In this document: positions 1,572 through 64,000 of the stretch, piece by piece | How positions within the stretch are numbered: the first letter of the stretch is position 1 | How the letters are laid out: each line of letters begins with the position of its first letter | Origin: G963555815 sp965249615 [NCBI: bacterium] | GTDB taxonomy: Bacteria > UBA8248 > JACPRG01 | Assembly: GCA_965249615.1 (NCBI GenBank) | Contig: CBDFMI010000004.1 | Coordinates: forward strand, 186,001 to 250,000 | Length of the DNA stretch: 64,000 nucleotides | Direction: 5' to 3' | The notes under the pieces: generated by a model | Told to the model about the DNA's origin: nothing | Databases searched by the model: none | Seen by the model: only the letters and a program-made list of their open reading frames with translations | Made by a program: the position numbers and the translations under genes

Positions 1572-2632
1572 ATGATGCACGTTAAAGAGCTGAAAGCGCC
1601 TTCTGACGACGGAAGCCCCCGTTCAAGCCAGGGTCCTTCCCCCGAGGGACCGATGTTCTCTCGGGTATCTACTGCTCCAGATGAGACAATGCTTTTCGAC
1701 GCCTATTCTCGGGCGGTGGTTCGAGCCGTTGAGCAGACCTCCCCTGCCGTGGTCCACATCCACCGGGGAGGGTCCAGGAAAAAGGCTGAAACTCGGTCAG
1801 GGCGGAGTGACCGAGGCTCAGGCTCCGGTGTCGTATTCGCCCCCGATGGATTTATCCTGACCAATGACCATGTGGTTCGGGGGGCGCGCTCCCTCTCTAT
1901 CAGCCTCAATGACGGCCGAAGCGTGGAGGCGAAGGTCCTGGGGGAAGACCCCCCGACGGACCTGGCCGTCCTCCGGGCGGAGGCCACTGATTTAACCGCC
2001 GCCCCCTTCGGGGACTCCTCAACACTCAGAGTGGGACAGCTCGTCGTCGCCATCGGGAATCCTTTGGGTTTTCAGTGCACTGTGACGGCGGGGGTGGTCA
2101 GCGCCCTTGGCCGTTCCCTTCGCAGCTTCAGCGGGCGTCTCATCGATCATGTGATCCAGACCGACGCCGCCCTGAACCCCGGCAACTCAGGGGGCCCCTG
2201 GTGGACTCCCAGGGAAGGGTGGTGGGGATCAACACGGCCGTCATCCTCCCCGCCCAAGGGATCTGCTTCGCCATCCCCAGCAATACGGCAAAGCTCGTGG
2301 CGGGACAGATCATGGCGGAGGGAAGGGTGCGCCGAGGCTTTTTGGGGATCCAGGCCCAGTCGGTCACCATCCCGAAAGACATCGTCCGCTCCTACGGCCT
2401 CCCGGGAGAGGCGGGGGTGCGGGTCCTTGGGGTCGAAAAGAAAAGCCCGGCAAAAAAGGCGGGCGTTCAGGAGGGGGATTTTCTCTGGGCGGTGGACCAA
2501 AAACCCATTGGCGGGATCGATGACCTTCACCGCATATTGACAGAGAGAAGGGAAGGGCAGGAAATCTCGCTCTCTGTCGTGCGAAAGGGGAAACGCCTGG
2601 TCCTTCAGGCCACCCTCGCCGAGTCCAAATAG
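1572..2632 (+). CDS. HtrA/DegP-like trypsin-type serine protease with PDZ domain (frameshifted at ~2195)
   Basis: The first frame encodes the trypsin-like domain with all three catalytic residues in their family contexts: His in TNDHVV, Asp in PTDLAVL and Ser in NPGNSGGP. Directly after GNSGGP the frame must change by one base to continue as [16 protein letters not shown] and then a PDZ domain ([21 protein letters not shown]). The break falls in a GGGGGCCCC run at 2191-2198, where one C appears to be missing. The N-terminus lacks a clear signal peptide or membrane anchor: residues 1-40 are polar, unlike DegP. I list one gene across both frames; the shift may be an assembly error or a real lesion. 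Confidence 0.75.
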
Positions 2633-44425: not shown

Positions 44426-45556
44426 TCAGGGGAGAATGGTGATGTGGCCTACCGGGCCGTCGGTGACCTGTCCGATGATGGCGGGGGCGGGGACGCCCTC
44501 CCTTTTCATCTTCTCCACCATGGGTCCGGCCTTTTCCGGTGGAAGGGCGATGAGAAGGGGCCCGGAGGTCTGTGCGTCACACAGGACAGCCAGCTCCCGC
44601 TCTGTCGCCCCTGGGGAAAGAGTCACCTTCTCTCTCATCCACTTCCGGTTTCGCTCCCCCCCTCCGCGGGTCCCGGGAATGGCAAAAGCCTCGATCCCCT
44701 CAAAGCGGGGGACTTTTTGGAAGGAGATCTTCATCCCGACGCCGCTTGCCTCGGCCACGTTATGGGCGTGGCCGAGGAGACCATAGCCGGTGATATCGGT
44801 GCAGGCGTGGGCCTCGAACTCCACCATAATCTCCCCCGCCCGCCGGTTCAGTGTCCGCATAGAGTGGACGGTCTCCTCGTAGACCTCCTCCGTGACAGAG
44901 GTCCCGCGGCCATTTCCCCCTAAGCGGAAACGCTTTCTCCACCCGGCGAAGCCGTCCGGGGCCTTCCTCATGTTGGTGACGATGCCGGTCCCGATCTTCT
45001 TGGTGAGGACGAGGGAGTCTCCGGGCCGTGCCTGGGTGTTCGTGATCATGGCGCGAGGGTCCACGATGCCCGTGACGGCGATCCCATACTTGGGTTCGGG
45101 GTCATCGACGCTGTGGCCCCCCACGATGACGGCCCCCGCCTCCATCATCTTCTCGGCCCCGCCCCGGAGGATCTCGCCCAGGGTGTCAAGACCGACAGCG
45201 CAGGGATAGCTCACCAGGTTGAGGCCCGTTACGGGTCTCGCCCCCATGGTGTAGCAGTCGCTGAGGGCGTTGGCGGCCGCAATCTGGCCGAACTCGTAGG
45301 GGCTGTCCACGATGGGGGTGAAGAAGTCCACCGTCTGGACAATGGCCAAATCTTCCCGAAGCCGGTAGACCCCGGTGTCGTCTCCGGCATTCAGCCCGTA
45401 GAGAAGGTTCGGGTCAGTGAAGCGGGGCAGCCCTGCCAGGGCCGTTCGCAGGTCCTCCGGACCCAACTTGCTGCCTCACCCTCCGGCCTTGACCATCCGG
45501 GTCAGCAGGACCCCTTCGTCCGCCTTGCGGCTCACCTCAGACTTCCTCGAATTCAT
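44426..45556 (-). CDS. selD: Selenophosphate synthase, itself a selenoprotein (in-frame UGA = Sec27)
   Basis: SelD makes selenophosphate from selenide and ATP for Sec-tRNA synthesis. A homologous frame runs from GPEDLRTAL to the stop at 44426, but the family N-terminus lies upstream across a UGA at 45476-45478: the frame reads MVKAGG-U-GSKLGPED back to ATG 45556. The Sec aligns with catalytic Cys17 of E. coli SelD and Lys30 (three residues on) with Lys20. Later motifs are TVDFFTPIVDSPYEFGQIAAANALSD, GGHSVDDPEPKYG and CTDITGYGLLGHA. Total 376 residues, normal length. A start at ATG 45496 is less likely as it leaves only six residues before Sec. selA, selB and selC are not in the window. Confidence 0.92.
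45451..45475 (-). promoter_or_regulatory. Candidate bSECIS element in selD
   Basis: Twelve bases after the UGA the mRNA can form GGTCC-GGA-GGACC, a 5-bp stem with a G-starting tight loop, extended across a bulge by GCA/TGC. Position and apical G fit a bacterial SECIS that recruits SelB, but the stem is short. Confidence 0.55.
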
Positions 45557-54978: not shown

Positions 54979-55250
54979 CTTTCGCATGAGGAGAATCAAG
55001 GGGTTTAGCAGTGAAGAAGGGCTGAAGAGCCCGGTCTCGACCCACCGGTGATGAATGTGGAACGTTTTTAGAAACAAGCTGTTGGGCCGGCCTACGTTGG
55101 GGTTTGGCCTTCCATAATGGGCTTGACAGCCGGAGGGCAACAGGATTAACGTTAGCGCATACAGTCAACGGTGTCGGGAACATCTCTGGCAGGGCTTGGG
55201 AACGTCTTTGCCAAGCCTAGATGGGAGAAACCTGTAGAGGAGGGCAGCGC

Positions 55251-57122
55251 GTGATTGTCAGACGATACAAGGACGACAAAGAGAAACAGAAAATCATCGC
55301 CAATACGGCCCAGGAGTACAAAAAAGAGTGTGGCTTCTTCGTGACGGACCGCATCCGTACGAATGTGATGTACGGGCTGACCGACTCGAAACGTGTTTCT
55401 GCCAAAGAATTCGCCCCTTTGATTAAGGACGACGATCGTGTGGTGGGCATCTCCCATAAAGGGCAATCCGTGGCCTACCCCTACTTCATCACAGATTACT
55501 ACCACTATATGAACGATGTGATCGGAGGGGACCCCGTCGTTTTCCAAACCTGAGAGAGGTGCGGGTCTGGCACCTCGTTCAGCGGTCTGCTGAACAATAA
55601 AAGATTTAATTGGGACCTATCCGGACTTCTCCTGGCCCAGCAGGGAGGGTGGGACTCAGAAACTGAAAGTTCCTGGTGGAGCATTGACGGCCTTGCCTAT
55701 GACGGCCCTCTGAAGGGCACGATGCTGGATTACCTCGCCTACGTCCACTGCACTTGGGCGGAGTGGCTGGAGCTCCATCCTGACACCGAGGTCATGGCCC
55801 TTCCCGACGATCCGAAGCATAAAGATCCTCGAGGCGGTCACGCCTCCGAAGAGTACTGGGAGCGGCCGGGGATTGACAAGTTCATGATCGCGGGACTTGT
55901 GTCCGGTGAATTAGACCGCCAGCTTCCAGAGAACGTCACGTGCATAGGGGTAAACCTCCCTCAGGGTGTCAAGGCATATCCGGTCAGAGACACTAAGCTT
56001 GAGGGGGGCCTCACCCATGACAAGCTAGGCGATGTGCCCTTGCTCCTCATCTCTGGGCCTGCGCCGGACAGCTACTTTACAGGGGTTTTCGACCGAAGGG
56101 TCGAGGGCAAGGTGCTAGAGTTCAAGCCCCAGAAGGGGACTGGGGTGGTCTGGAACATGGTGGACAATGAGACGGGGACCGTGTGGAACCCCGAAGGGCT
56201 TGGGATTGACGGGAAGCTCAAGGGCAAGCAGCTCACTCCGGTCCACTACGGTTTCTGTCGATGGCACTCGTGGATCTACACCCACCCCACAACCGAGATC
56301 TACAAGACCAAGCGGACAGAGGCCCCGGAAATCGAAGAGGGCGTCTTCGCGCAGCTCCTGAAAGGGCTTCGCGATGCGAAGCACAAGGTGACGGTCAAGC
56401 GCGAGATGATCAACGACGCGCGTCCCCTTCAGACCGACCGGGGGCTGATCCTGGACATCAACGGCGACCGCTTCCTGCTTCACCACTTCACCAATGAGAC
56501 GGCTTGCCGAGACTACTCCGTCCTCACGCCCCATATACTCCGTGCCGGGTGGTACATTCTCCAATCTGACCCCCCGGATCAGTTCACCGATATCGCCACG
56601 AACGTCACGAGGCTCCCGGCCGAGGAGATCAAGTGGTCGAAGCTCCTCGAGGACGAAAAGTTCGTCCAGGCCTTCCAAGGTGCCGCTCCCAAGGAGACGG
56701 GGCCGGACTACCCCGGATTCAGCGATCTCGTCGGGGCTATCAACCAGGCCGGGTACGACTTCTTCCCCGGGGCTCCTGAGCTCCACTTTGAGATCCCGTA
56801 CCTGTTGCCCTGGGGGACCTATATTGGCCTGCGCCCCGGGGAGGAAAACTTTTATTTGGCCACCATTAATGCTTCGGACCACTTTGAAGTCCACCGGTGG
56901 AAGACAGAAGAGGGGGCGGAAGAGTACAAGAAATACGCCAAGCACGCCTTCCGTGTCGGACGCTATGTCTTCCAACACGTCCCCTTGGCCGCCTACCAAA
57001 TCCAGATGTTCCGGATGGGGGATAAGCCCGACGACAAGGTGATGTGGTCGGATTTTCTGGAGGACGAGGAGTTCATAAACATCGTCCGCTCCGTCGTCGA
57101 GGGTGCACCAGCTAAGGCTTGA
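55251..57122 (+). CDS. Tandem DUF3179 protein with in-frame UGA (Sec101, UxxC): predicted selenoprotein
   Basis: The frame from GTG 55251 (GAGGAGG 7 bases upstream) runs to 57122 with one interruption, UGA at 55551. Read through, it gives 623 residues. Residues ~60-170 are DUF3179: VVGISHKGQSVAYP, GGDPVVFQT-U-ERCGSG where the family usually has TYCPxCGS, then ETESSWWS, GPLKG and HPDTEV. A second DUF3179 copy (~190-310: GVKAYPVRD, GDVPLLLISGPAPDS, FDRRVEGKVLEF, KGKQLTPV, HPTTEIY) has lost both cysteines. The last ~250 residues hold two repeats ending WSKLLEDEKFV and WSDFLEDEEFI. There is no signal peptide. Function unknown; UxxC suggests selenol redox catalysis. A bSECIS hairpin follows the UGA. 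Confidence 0.85.
55554..55577 (+). promoter_or_regulatory. bSECIS element of the DUF3179 selenoprotein gene
   Basis: Two bases after the UGA a perfect 7-bp stem GAGGTGC/GCACCTC (55556-55562 with 55570-55576) closes the loop GGGTCTG, which contains the GGUC seen in the E. coli fdhF SECIS loop. The element overlaps codons for the CxxC-region residues. Confidence 0.82.
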
Positions 57123-57357: not shown

Positions 57358-58005
57358 ATGGCCTGGATCAAGACCATTGACGAGTCTGAGGCCACTGGCG
57401 AGCTCAAGGTGCATTATGACAGGGCGCGCAAGACCCGGGGGTTTGTGCCGAACATTCAGAAGATCAACAGTCTTAAGCCTGAGCTCTTGAGCCGGTACTA
57501 CCATTTCTCCCGCGCGGTAACCTTCGGAGGCAGCAGCCTGGGGCGAAAGCGGGAGGAGATGATAGCGGTCACCGTCTCAGCGCTTATCAAATGCAAGTAT
57601 TGAACGGTCTCTCACGCGGAGGTCCTCCGCAAAGTCATCTGGAACGACGCCAGGCTGGCGGCCAAGGCCAGCGGCGCAAAGGAGGGAATCAGTCAAAGCG
57701 ACGCCAATCAGCTGGCCGTGGCGCTCAAGGAGGATTATCGGAATGCGGGCCTTGACCCTGCGGACGTCGCCATGCTGGAGTACGCAGAGAAGATCACCCG
57801 CCATCCCACCGACGTTACAGAAGCGGACATAAAAAACCTGCGAACCCATGGATTCAACGATCAGCAGATCCTGGAGATCGCGGCGGTGACGTCCCTCTTC
57901 AATTACCTGACTCGGATGGCCAACGCCCTGGGGGTGGAGACGGACAAGGAAGATTTCACCGGTGACCCGCAGATCCTGGCCAAGCTGTCTGAGGGGCTGA
58001 AATAG
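57358..58005 (+). CDS. AhpD-like alkylhydroperoxidase/peroxidase-related selenoprotein (Sec82, CxxU)
   Basis: The frame from ATG 57358 is cut by UGA at 57601 and continues in the same frame to 58005, giving 215 residues. The interruption is in the AhpD active-site signature: ALIKCKY-U-TVSHAE, i.e. C79xxU82xxxH86, where relatives have CxxCxxxH. Sec replaces the second cysteine, the peroxidatic residue in AhpD. C-terminal family blocks HPTDVTEADIKNLRTHGFNDQQILEIAAVTSLFNYLTRMANALG are intact. AGGGAGAAAAG precedes the start. A bSECIS hairpin follows the UGA. It is downstream of the DUF3179 selenoprotein on the same strand and probably reduces peroxides. Confidence 0.92.
57616..57630 (+). promoter_or_regulatory. 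bSECIS element of the AhpD-like selenoprotein gene
   Basis: Twelve bases after the UGA, GCGGA/TCCGC (57616-57620 with 57626-57630) closes loop GGTCC, matching the apical GGUC of bacterial SECIS elements and of the neighbouring gene. Bases G621 and C625 can add a sixth pair. Confidence 0.75.
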
Positions 58006-62125: not shown

Positions 62126-63109
62126 CTAAGGCGAAGACATGCGCCAGAGGTGGACCGTGCCATCCTCTGAGGCCGAGGCGATGAAGTGGCCGTTAGGCGA
62201 GAAGGCAATCGAGTGGATCCAGCCCCCATGCCCCTCAAAGAGCTTCACTTCCAGCCCGGTGGCCCTATCCCAAACGCGGACCGTCTCGTCCACTGACCCA
62301 GAGGCCAGCTGTTTGCCATCAGGTGAGAAGGCCACGGAGGAGATAAGATTTTCATGCCCGTGAAAAGCCCCCGCGTTCTTCGTAAGCAGTCCCACCTCCT
62401 CTGTGTTGATCATGCGTATAACGGTCACCTGATCGGACGAAGAGGCCAGGAGTTTGCCATCGGGCGAAAACGAGACGGAGAAGATCCGCCATCCATGGTC
62501 CGTCATTTTCCTCATTTCCCGCTTTGACGAGACGTCCCAGATGCGGACGCTGTTGTCAAATGACCCAGAGGCCAGGAGTTTGCCATCGGGTGAAAAGACA
62601 ACAGAACGGACCTGGCGAGTATGTCCTTCGAGACGCGCTATTTCCTCCCCTGAGGACACATCCCAGAGGCGGATGGTCTCGTCCACTGACCCAGAGGCCA
62701 GAAGACGGCCATCAGGTGAGAAGGCGACGGAGTTGACCGGCTTTTCGTGCCCCAGCATTCTCTTTATTTCTTCCCCTGAGGAGACGTCCCAGAGGCGGAT
62801 AGTGTCGTCCCATGACCCTGTGGCCAGGACGCGGCCGTCGGGCGAGAAGGAGACGGCACCGACCATCATTTGATGCCCATCAAATTCTCTCATCTCCTTC
62901 CCTGAGGAGACCTCCCAGAGGCGAACGGTGGCGTCACTGGACCCTGAGGCGATGAGGCGACTGTCAGGCGAAAATGCGACCGCGTGGACCGACCCCTCGT
63001 GCCCACTGAGGATCTGGGCATCTTCATCTCCAGCGAAGGCGAGAGACGCTGCGAGCAGGACAGGAAAAAGGAAAATCAAGGCCTGAAGGGGCCACCAACG
63101 TGTAGGCAT
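62126..63109 (-). CDS. Exported WD40-repeat beta-propeller protein
   Basis: The 327-residue protein has a signal peptide (residues ~8-26, LIFLFPVLLAASLAFA) and seven WD40 repeats, each with a SFSPDGRLLASGS-like strand and RLWDVSSG end, filling the whole mature region. One complete seven-bladed propeller is expected. No enzymatic or kinase domain is attached. Such secreted propellers are protein-interaction scaffolds. Its repeats are similar at DNA level to the next gene, suggesting recent duplication. Confidence 0.85.
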   Translation of the reverse strand: MPTRWWPLQALIFLFPVLLAASLAFAGDEDAQILSGHEGSVHAVAFSPDSRLIASGSSDATVRLWEVSSGKEMREFDGHQMMVGAVSFSPDGRVLATGSWDDTIRLWDVSSGEEIKRMLGHEKPVNSVAFSPDGRLLASGSVDETIRLWDVSSGEEIARLEGHTRQVRSVVFSPDGKLLASGSFDNSVRIWDVSSKREMRKMTDHGWRIFSVSFSPDGKLLASSSDQVTVIRMINTEEVGLLTKNAGAFHGHENLISSVAFSPDGKQLASGSVDETVRVWDRATGLEVKLFEGHGGWIHSIAFSPNGHFIASASEDGTVHLWRMSSP

Positions 63110-63224
63110 TTTAGTCTCCCCTGATTTCCATATCAGAAGGCTTCCCGCCAGATTCCAGGTTCGAGTGAATCACAGTGCGGATTATAACCCAAGGCCGACC
63201 GTGGGGGCAATCCCGATGGGCTGT

Positions 63225-64000
63225 CTACTGCCTTGGACCCTCGGAAGGCCCCTCCGGGGAAACCGTCCACAGGCGAATGGAGTTGTCACCCATTCCTCTA
63301 GCAAAGTGGCGGCCATCGGGTGAGGAGGCGGCCGAGTGGATCCAATCCACACCCTCCTCGGGTCTCTCCGCCGGTTCCCCTGTTGCGACGTCCCAGAGGT
63401 GGATGATGATGATGTGACTCCCTTCCCCTGAGGCGAGGAGACGGCCGTCGGGCGAGAAGGTGACAGCGTTGACCCCGTGCCTATGCCCCCCCATGCTTCT
63501 TAATTCTCTCCCTGTGGACACATCCCAGAGGCGGGCGGTCTTGTCCGCTGACCCAGAGGCCAGGAGACGGCCATCAGGAGAAAAAGAGACGGAGAAGATG
63601 GCCTTCTTGTGCCCACTCAGAAGTCCAATGTGTCTCCCGGTTGGGACCTCCCAGAGGCGTATGGTCTTGTCCCTTGACCCAGAGGCCAGGAGGCGACCGT
63701 TAGGAGAGAAGGAGAGGGAGTAGATCCAGTCTCTATGGCCCTCGAGGTTCCCCAACTCTTCCCCTGAGGAGATGTCCCAGAGACGAACGGAATTGTCCTT
63801 TGACCCTGAGGCCAGGACGCGGCCGTCGGGCGAAAACTGAGTGGAGTAAACCCAGTCGTCATGTCCCTTCAGATTTCTTAACTCTTCCCCTGAGGAGACG
63901 TCCCAGAGACGAACGGAACCATCCTGTGACCCTGAGGCGAGAAGGCGACCGTCGGGAGAGAAGGAGAGGGAGATGACCGAGCCCTCATGCCCTCTTAGGG
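63225..64000 (-). CDS. WD40-repeat protein, C-terminal part (5' end outside window)
   Basis: The frame is open to the window edge at 64000 and encodes six or so WD40 repeats (SFSPDGRLLASGSQDGSVRLWD, then HDDWVYSTQFSPDG and others). The last repeat is degenerate (AASSPDGRHFARGMGDNSIRLW). An unusual GEGSHIIIIHLWD replaces the usual blade turn at about 63405. The N-terminus, and any domain fused there, is not visible. It is a paralogue of the neighbouring propeller gene 115 bases downstream. Confidence 0.8.
   Translation of the reverse strand, partial: LRGHEGSVISLSFSPDGRLLASGSQDGSVRLWDVSSGEELRNLKGHDDWVYSTQFSPDGRVLASGSKDNSVRLWDISSGEELGNLEGHRDWIYSLSFSPNGRLLASGSRDKTIRLWEVPTGRHIGLLSGHKKAIFSVSFSPDGRLLASGSADKTARLWDVSTGRELRSMGGHRHGVNAVTFSPDGRLLASGEGSHIIIIHLWDVATGEPAERPEEGVDWIHSAASSPDGRHFARGMGDNSIRLWTVSPEGPSEGPRQ

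What the first reader, a model, noticed from the sequence alone, without database searches (positions are those of the whole stretch)
55251..57122. A DUF3179 protein that is a predicted selenoprotein (UxxC)
Seen: one frame interrupted only by UGA at 55551, with convincing DUF3179 sequence on both sides (SHKGQSVAYP before; ERCGSG, ETESSWWS, GPLKG, HPDTEV after). The family's CxxC first Cys is the UGA. A 7-bp stem with GGUC-containing loop follows within two bases. Known: bacterial Sec insertion needs such a hairpin just 3' of UGA, and Sec commonly replaces redox Cys in CxxC. Inference: DUF3179 members are thiol/selenol oxidoreductases, and this is a selenoprotein family I do not know to be described.
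Basis: partly seen in the sequence, partly recalled or inferred. Interest (0 to 1): 0.95.

Follow-up and report, generated by a model that had tools for sequence, protein, structure and literature searches.

The report
A DUF3179-family bacterial selenoprotein gene
This bacterial gene very probably reads one UGA "stop" codon as the rare amino acid selenocysteine; the protein family was already listed as containing selenoproteins, but this is a divergent long member with an unusual pair of RNA hairpins after the codon, and its predicted shape hints at what kind of protein the family is.

Summary
Window 55251-57122 (+) encodes a 623-residue DUF3179 protein (PF11376, E 7e-33) read through one in-frame UGA at 55551. 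In 114 distinct homologous sequences (window included) the residue at that column is Cys in 76, in-frame UGA in 36, Ser in 2. The closest relative found shares the whole architecture and has Cys there (CEVC against UERC). The window also carries selD, itself with UGA at its active site, and an AhpD/CMD-like gene with CxxU. UGA=Sec is very likely.

Corrections. (1) The family is not new: two reviews list DUF3179 as a UxxC/T selenoprotein. (3) A CxxC pair is not essential: UxxS, UxxA and UxxT members occur.

New here: a long form without an evident signal peptide, tandem hairpins, and a predicted fold in which both DUF3179 repeats resemble Rieske domains without the cluster motif. Hairpin energy does not separate UGA from Cys genes. 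Substrate unknown.

The parts
55237..55244 (+). Shine-Dalgarno-like GAGGAGGG before the GTG start
   Evidence: sequence read directly
55251..57122 (+). DUF3179 selenoprotein gene, 623 residues with UGA55551 read as Sec (residue 101); own stop codon is TGA 57120-57122
55428..55796 (+). first DUF3179 repeat (residues 60-182), carries Sec101 and Cys104; Rieske-like fold in the model
   Evidence: hhalign of the two repeats E about 1e-30; folds
55551..55553 (+). in-frame UGA, predicted selenocysteine codon
55556..55576 (+). hairpin 1, 7-bp stem, loop GGGUCUG, loop 9 nt after UGA (outside the published spacing)
55577..55595 (+). hairpin 2, 7-bp stem, loop GGUCU, loop 30 nt after UGA; fits the bacterial SECIS model; preferred SECIS candidate
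55935..56294 (+). second, degenerate DUF3179 repeat (residues 229-348), Rieske-like in the model, no Cys/Sec at the equivalent place
56307..57119 (+). C-terminal extension: two repeats of about 130 residues (27% identical over 83), no Pfam family; both also present in the Cys homologue L172; low-confidence part of the model
57358..58005 (+). neighbouring AhpD/CMD-like gene with CKYU motif (in-frame UGA 57601); TIGR01926 125.6 bits
57616..57630 (+). SECIS candidate of the CMD gene, GCGGAG-GUC-CUCCGC, loop 16-18 nt after UGA (-8.2 kcal/mol at best)
44426..45556 (-). selD (selenophosphate synthetase), itself with in-frame UGA (45478-45476) at the active site, GGUGSK

Best explanation
The gene makes a 623-residue DUF3179 protein, without an evident signal peptide, in which UGA55551 is translated as selenocysteine. 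Inferred steps: SelD (shown in the window) makes selenophosphate; SelA charges tRNA-Sec; SelB brings it to the ribosome by binding a hairpin just 3' of the UGA. That hairpin is most likely hairpin 2 (55577-55595, loop GGUCU at 30 nt), because hairpin 1 starts two bases after the UGA and should be unwound inside the ribosome when the UGA is in the A site. Sec101 sits at the end of a beta-strand in the model, in the first of two DUF3179 repeats, and is the family's conserved reactive residue (Sec or Cys). The protein most likely acts as a selenol/thiol oxidoreductase, with Cys104 as resolving partner in UxxC members and some other thiol in UxxS/UxxA/UxxT members. The redox role and the partner are inferred; no substrate is known.
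For: PF11376 across the UGA. 114 distinct sequences: C 76, UGA 36, S 2 at the column. Closest relative found, L172, aligns over query residues 46-503, including the C-terminal extension, with E 2.7e-51, and has CEVC where the window has UERC. On the tree of 78 rows the U/C label needs at least 5 changes, 3 of them forced by well supported branches, as expected of Sec/Cys exchange. selD with its own UGA and a CxxU neighbour gene in the same 64 kb. Of 32 genomes with a UGA-type DUF3179, 28 have SelB over the curated cut-off, 28 a tRNA-Sec of 50 bits or more (my own line), 31 at least one. Hairpin 2 meets the loop, stem, spacing and energy limits of the published model. Synonymous-shuffle and dinucleotide-shuffle tests.
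Against: No genome is held for the window, so its selA, selB and tRNA-Sec were not seen; only tRNA-Phe and tmRNA lie in the window. Hairpin energy does not separate UGA genes (27 of 32 at -7.5 or lower) from Cys genes (36 of 47) of the family (p 0.34), and strict hairpins are only somewhat commoner (16 of 32 against 17 of 47); 138 of 1980 TGA triplets of the window pass the simple SECIS model by chance. The folds after the UGAs of the CMD gene and of selD are no better than shuffles (z 0.28 and -0.25), and selD's 17-nt hairpin misses the energy limit (-7.1). SelB is over the cut-off in 21 of 24 genomes where only Cys forms were seen, so it gives no contrast. The window protein is divergent (at most 30% identity in the tree set, long branch). 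Two family members have Ser at the column. A redox function is not shown by any result here.
Confidence: 0.88

Rival explanations
1. UGA55551 is a true stop: a pseudogene, or a sequencing error in a Cys-type gene.
For: The frame is closed at 55553 under table 11; another gene of the window (HtrA-like, 1572-2540) seems frame-shifted.
Against: UGA at exactly this column in 35 other sequences of 114, in genomes of which 31 of 32 tested have SelB or a tRNA-Sec; the 522 codons after it stay open; two more genes of the window have UGA at known Sec positions.
Confidence: 0.04
2. The host reads UGA as an ordinary sense codon (Trp or Gly), so no SECIS is needed.
For: The frame is open under such a code.
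Against: 6 of 14 clear genes of the window that I checked end with TGA, this one and selD included; the column is Cys, UGA or Ser in homologues, never Trp or Gly, in 114 sequences; the three UGA genes found all have UGA at a Cys/Sec position.
Confidence: 0.02
3. The protein carries Sec, but the site is not redox-active: Sec/Cys acts as a nucleophile or metal ligand in the Rieske-like fold.
For: The +3 residue is C, T, A or S; Asp135, Trp142, Gly152 and Pro177 are invariant in 49 sequences, Asp135 and Gly152 in 95; the fold resembles a metal-cluster domain.
Against: The 2026 review thinks that most uncharacterised selenoproteins probably serve redox functions (PMC13188914, section 7, part 1 of 3 read); 84 of 114 sequences keep Cys at +3.
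Confidence: 0.2

Closest known systems
DUF3179 domain-containing selenoprotein (PF11376, UxxC/T), reported in the Olavius algarvensis symbiont study of 2007 according to PMC9312934 and PMC13188914
   Same: same Pfam family, Sec at the first position of the CxxC/T motif
   Different: window form has UERC where the other UGA members fetched have UP[LIV]x or UTLC, no evident signal peptide, and two extra C-terminal repeats; at most 30% identical to any row of the tree set
   Same: same architecture, 29% identical over query residues 46-503, no evident signal peptide
   Different: CEVC: Cys in place of Sec
Bacterial SECIS of E. coli fdhF type (loop AGGUCU; recalled)
   Same: GGUCU in the apical loop of both window hairpins
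   Different: two abutting hairpins, loops at 9 and 30 nt; in the other UGA members the best candidate loop lies at 15-21 nt in 30 of 31 (searched from 13 to 37 nt)
Rieske [2Fe-2S] domain proteins, and the NirD-type nitrite reductase small subunit (a Rieske fold without cluster; recalled)
   Same: predicted fold of each DUF3179 repeat (Z at best 7.9 for the first, to the NirD-like 3c0d, and 9.5 for the second)
   Different: no CxH...CxxH cluster motif, no sequence match; NirD has no Sec (recalled)

Membership tests
DUF3179 (PF11376) | Pfam profile score over the gathering cut-off | tested here: met
   114.7 bits against 27, residues 50-348
DUF3179 (PF11376) | Cys (or Sec) at the conserved first position of the CPLC motif | tested here: met
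   UGA aligned with that Cys; C 76, U 36, S 2 of 114
Bacterial selenoprotein | in-frame UGA with family sequence on both sides and Cys in homologues | tested here: met
Bacterial selenoprotein | bSECIS: loop 3-9 nt with G in its first two bases, stem 4-16 bp, 16-37 nt from UGA, -7.5 kcal/mol or lower | tested here: met
   hairpin 2: loop 5, stem 7, 30 nt, -8.9. Hairpin 1 fails the spacing (9 nt). The model is loose: 138 of 1980 window TGAs pass
Bacterial selenoprotein | host has SelD | tested here: met
   selD 44426-45556, TIGR00476 342.4 bits against 125
Bacterial selenoprotein | host has SelA, SelB and tRNA-Sec | not testable with these tools
   no genome held for the window; in genomes with UGA-type DUF3179: SelB 28 of 32, tRNA-Sec of 50 bits or more 28 of 32; SelA was not searched
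Bacterial selenoprotein | selenium in the protein | not testable with these tools
   needs 75Se label or mass spectrometry
Rieske domain superfamily | Rieske fold | tested here: inconclusive
   second repeat Z up to 9.5; first repeat alone Z up to 7.9, Foldseek probability up to 0.99 but best E 0.034; no sequence match
Rieske domain superfamily | CxH and CxxH cluster ligands | tested here: not met
   no such conserved columns in 49 sequences; P0001 has no CxH and a single CxxH, at residue 336, a Cys not among the conserved columns

The most novel reading that the evidence does not exclude
DUF3179 proteins are tandem Rieske-fold domains that lack the usual cluster ligands and carry instead one reactive Sec or Cys in the first repeat: a selenol enzyme class on a Rieske-like scaffold. 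In this gene the Sec is inserted with a double signal of two abutting GGUCU-type hairpins.
Probability: 0.3. Interest if true: 0.65.

Novelty: new member of a known kind. Interest (0 to 1): 0.45.

Why it matters
The gene adds a divergent, long member to a selenoprotein family of unknown function. The survey of 114 sequences shows that the single Sec/Cys, not a CxxC pair, is what the family conserves, and that the motif printed in the reviews (UxxC/T) should be widened to UxxS and UxxA. The Rieske-like fold of both repeats would be a first structural handle on DUF3179. The tandem hairpins make a clear, cheap test of how SelB chooses its RNA target.

Tried and rejected
Close relatives of P0001 by exact peptide patterns: none in genome contigs or viral contigs. 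A pattern from hairpin 1 in viral contigs: none. Rfam at gathering score: only tmRNA and tRNA in the window; at E up to 10 on 55500-55700 only a chance snoRNA match. PDB by sequence: nothing useful (one match, E 0.28, none up to E 10). NCBIfam: no family for P0001 at E 0.001. Plasmids: 17 records with distant DUF3179 matches; three of them were used in the survey.

Hairpin strength as a discriminator of UGA and Cys genes: failed (p 0.34); a stricter loop rule of my own gave 16 of 32 against 17 of 47, and G[GT]C loops 14 of 32 against 8 of 47. SelB as a contrast between UGA and Cys genomes: failed, 28 of 32 against 21 of 24 over the cut-off (for 10 of the 24 the Cys call rests on the best loci only). 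The Rfam cut-off for tRNA-Sec also rings in 5 of 14 control genomes, so I used 50 bits. Linkage of DUF3179 with the CMD gene: no other locus fetched by then has it at E 1e-3, though most DUF3179 loci hold only about 1.5 kb of flank. I first thought Sec101 might sit at the Rieske CxH cysteine; the aligned ranges do not support that, no residue-level alignment was available, and I do not claim it. The tree joins the window with L108, a long-branch join that the program itself warns of, so I do not place it. Absence of other folds is no evidence against them.

Rows dropped: near-identical rows were merged before counting; 13 profile hits without the column were not counted, and 113 of 127 searched sources, window included, show the column; one short row was left out of the tree, 78 of 79. 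A1 holds 49 sequences: the window, L177 and 47 of the 76 references. A2 holds 95: the window and 94 of the 107 references. The Ser rows L174 and L175 are in A2, not in A1. Only the best matches became loci, so the 114 sequences are a sample. Some genomes were searched more than once.

Full report
OBSERVATION. The frame 55251-57122 on the + strand is open except for UGA at 55551-55553. With UGA read as Sec it gives a 623-residue protein, P0001. P0001 matches PF11376 (DUF3179) over residues 50-348, on both sides of residue 101, at E 7.2e-33. A GAGGAGGG sequence ends six bases before the GTG start at 55251. The N-terminus has no evident signal peptide (read by eye, no program), unlike UPLC relatives whose N-termini look like signal peptides.

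THE COLUMN. I collected homologues in whole genomes with P0001. Matches were found in 14 of 18 genomes of the phylum that holds the Nitrospinota- and Tectomicrobia-labelled MAGs nearest to the window; in 3 of 16 genomes reached through selD loci of other groups; in 74 of 377 and 39 of 395 genomes of two further phyla; in 5 of 288 of another and 11 of 193 of a class inside it; and in 61 of 301 of another. Some genomes recur between calls. The best matches became loci. Among 114 distinct sequences that cover the column (window and three plasmid records included), the residue aligned with the UGA is Cys in 76, in-frame UGA in 36 and Ser in 2. The residue three further on is, in UGA members, C 20, T 6, A 6, S 4; in Cys members C 64, T 12; in the two Ser members S. 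So the UxxC/T motif of the reviews is too narrow, and the single Sec/Cys is what the family conserves. On a tree of 78 rows the U/C label needs at least 5 changes, of which well supported branches force 3.

THE NEAREST RELATIVE. L172 (genome G926) matches P0001 over residues 46-503 at E 2.7e-51 and 29% identity. It shares the C-terminal extension, which consists of two related repeats of about 130 residues without a Pfam family. It has CEVC where the window has UERC. A full-length Cys homologue is the classical sign of a selenoprotein.

THE HOST. No genome is held for the window. The window itself carries selD (TIGR00476, 342 bits), whose own active-site codon is UGA in the motif GGUGSK, and, 235 bases downstream of the DUF3179 gene, an AhpD/CMD-like gene with CKYU (TIGR01926), a family the 2026 review also lists as CxxU. 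SelD is 65-70% identical to proteins of Tectomicrobia-labelled MAGs and 51-65% to Nitrospinota-labelled (also Nitrospinaceae and Nitrospinae) ones. An acyl-CoA ligase of the window finds long matches of 46-52% identity in 15 of the 18 genomes of that phylum and at most 39% in near full-length matches elsewhere. Of 32 genomes with a UGA-type DUF3179 gene, 28 have SelB over its cut-off, 28 a tRNA-Sec of at least 50 bits, and 31 have one or the other. Of 24 genomes where only Cys forms were seen, 21 have SelB too, so this is permissive, not discriminating, evidence. 6 of 14 clear window genes end with TGA, so UGA is also a stop here.

THE HAIRPINS. The published bacterial model asks for 16-37 nt (PMC13188914, section 5, read in full). 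An abutting second hairpin (55577-55595; stem 7, loop GGUCU, 30 nt, -8.9 kcal/mol) fits. Both loops contain GGUCU. The 55-nt segment folds with z -4.2. In 1500 synonymous recodings, GGU-loop hairpins as stable arose 4 times at the near place, once at the far place, and never at both; with any G loop the counts are 14, 29 and 1, and the folding energy of the segment was reached 14 times. Over 1.92 million bases of both strands of the window and the loci fetched by then there were 11 rows of tandem GGU-loop hairpins; two rows are this site, and no other row has two stems of seven or more Watson-Crick pairs (read from its list). In the other UGA members the best candidate loop lies 15-21 nt after the UGA in 30 of 31 (searched from 13 to 37 nt). 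Against: across the family, hairpin energy does not separate UGA genes from Cys genes (p 0.34); 138 of 1980 TGAs in the window pass the loose model; and the folds after the UGAs of the CMD gene and selD are no better than shuffles. So the hairpins support the reading but do not prove it. That hairpin 1 is unwound in the ribosome and hairpin 2 binds SelB is inference.

THE FOLD. DUF3179 consists of two repeats (profile comparison E about 1e-30); the second has no Cys/Sec at the equivalent place in the window protein. AlphaFold2 models the DUF3179 part mostly well (22 of the 31 ten-residue blocks from 41 to 350 have mean pLDDT 90 or more) and the C-terminal extension poorly (mean of the whole 70). 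The 50 rows shown by each structural second look are, by title or by recall, Rieske-fold proteins: Z up to 9.5, nearly all on the second repeat, in the whole model, and up to 7.9 for the first repeat modelled alone (pLDDT 88.9). Foldseek alone gives for the first repeat probabilities up to 0.99 but a best E of 0.034, and for the whole model no E under 0.03. The tool warns that Z under 8 may mean only a common arrangement. The Rieske cluster motif is absent and no sequence search finds Rieske proteins. Cluster-less Rieske folds are known, as in NirD (recalled; the NirD-like 3c0d is the top row). I therefore report a resemblance of fold, not membership.

WHAT IS KNOWN. A full-text search for DUF3179 found three papers. 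Two are reviews whose tables list DUF3179 as a UxxC/T selenoprotein. Both cite Zhang and Gladyshev 2007, which is not held and was not read. Of PMC13188914 I read sections 5 and 9 in full, part 1 of 3 of section 7, and passages; of PMC9312934 passages only. The third paper only lists a DUF3179 protein in a table (one passage). Searches for DUF3179 with Rieske and for selenoprotein with Nitrospinota or Tectomicrobia found no paper in this library. The Rieske-like fold of DUF3179 was not found in print. No search was made for the long form. A search for selenoprotein, bSECIS, UGA and tandem listed three papers; in the two reviews among them 'tandem' occurs once each, in the title of the same cited paper, which is not about SECIS pairs by its title; the third was not opened.

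VERDICT. A real selenoprotein gene with high probability, of a family already catalogued; interest lies in the single-residue conservation, the tandem hairpins and the fold hint.

Noticed in passing
window 57358-58005 (+): AhpD/CMD-like gene (TIGR01926) with CKYU, in-frame UGA at 57601 and a hairpin with loop 16-18 nt after it: a second selenoprotein gene.
   Followed up: partly
window 44426-45556 (-): selD with UGA at the active site (GGUGSK): SelD of this host is itself a predicted selenoprotein.
   Followed up: yes
window 1572-2540 (+): HtrA-like protease frame that leaves the family sequence (recalled) after NPGNSGGP, which suggests a frameshift: pseudogene or sequence error.
   Followed up: no
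loci L145, L147, L148, L157 (UxxS); L151, L152, L156, L159, L160, L169 (UxxA): UGA-type DUF3179 genes with Ser or Ala at +3, not in the UxxC/T of the reviews.
   Followed up: yes
loci L174, L175: DUF3179 members with Ser at both motif positions (YSALS): the reactive residue is lost.
   Followed up: no
loci L148, L157: SECIS candidates with loop GGUCUA on 7-bp GC-rich stems, 20 nt after UGA, of the fdhF type (recalled).
   Followed up: partly
window 62126-63998 (-): Frames with WD40-like repeats (by eye), the outer one running off the window end.
   Followed up: no
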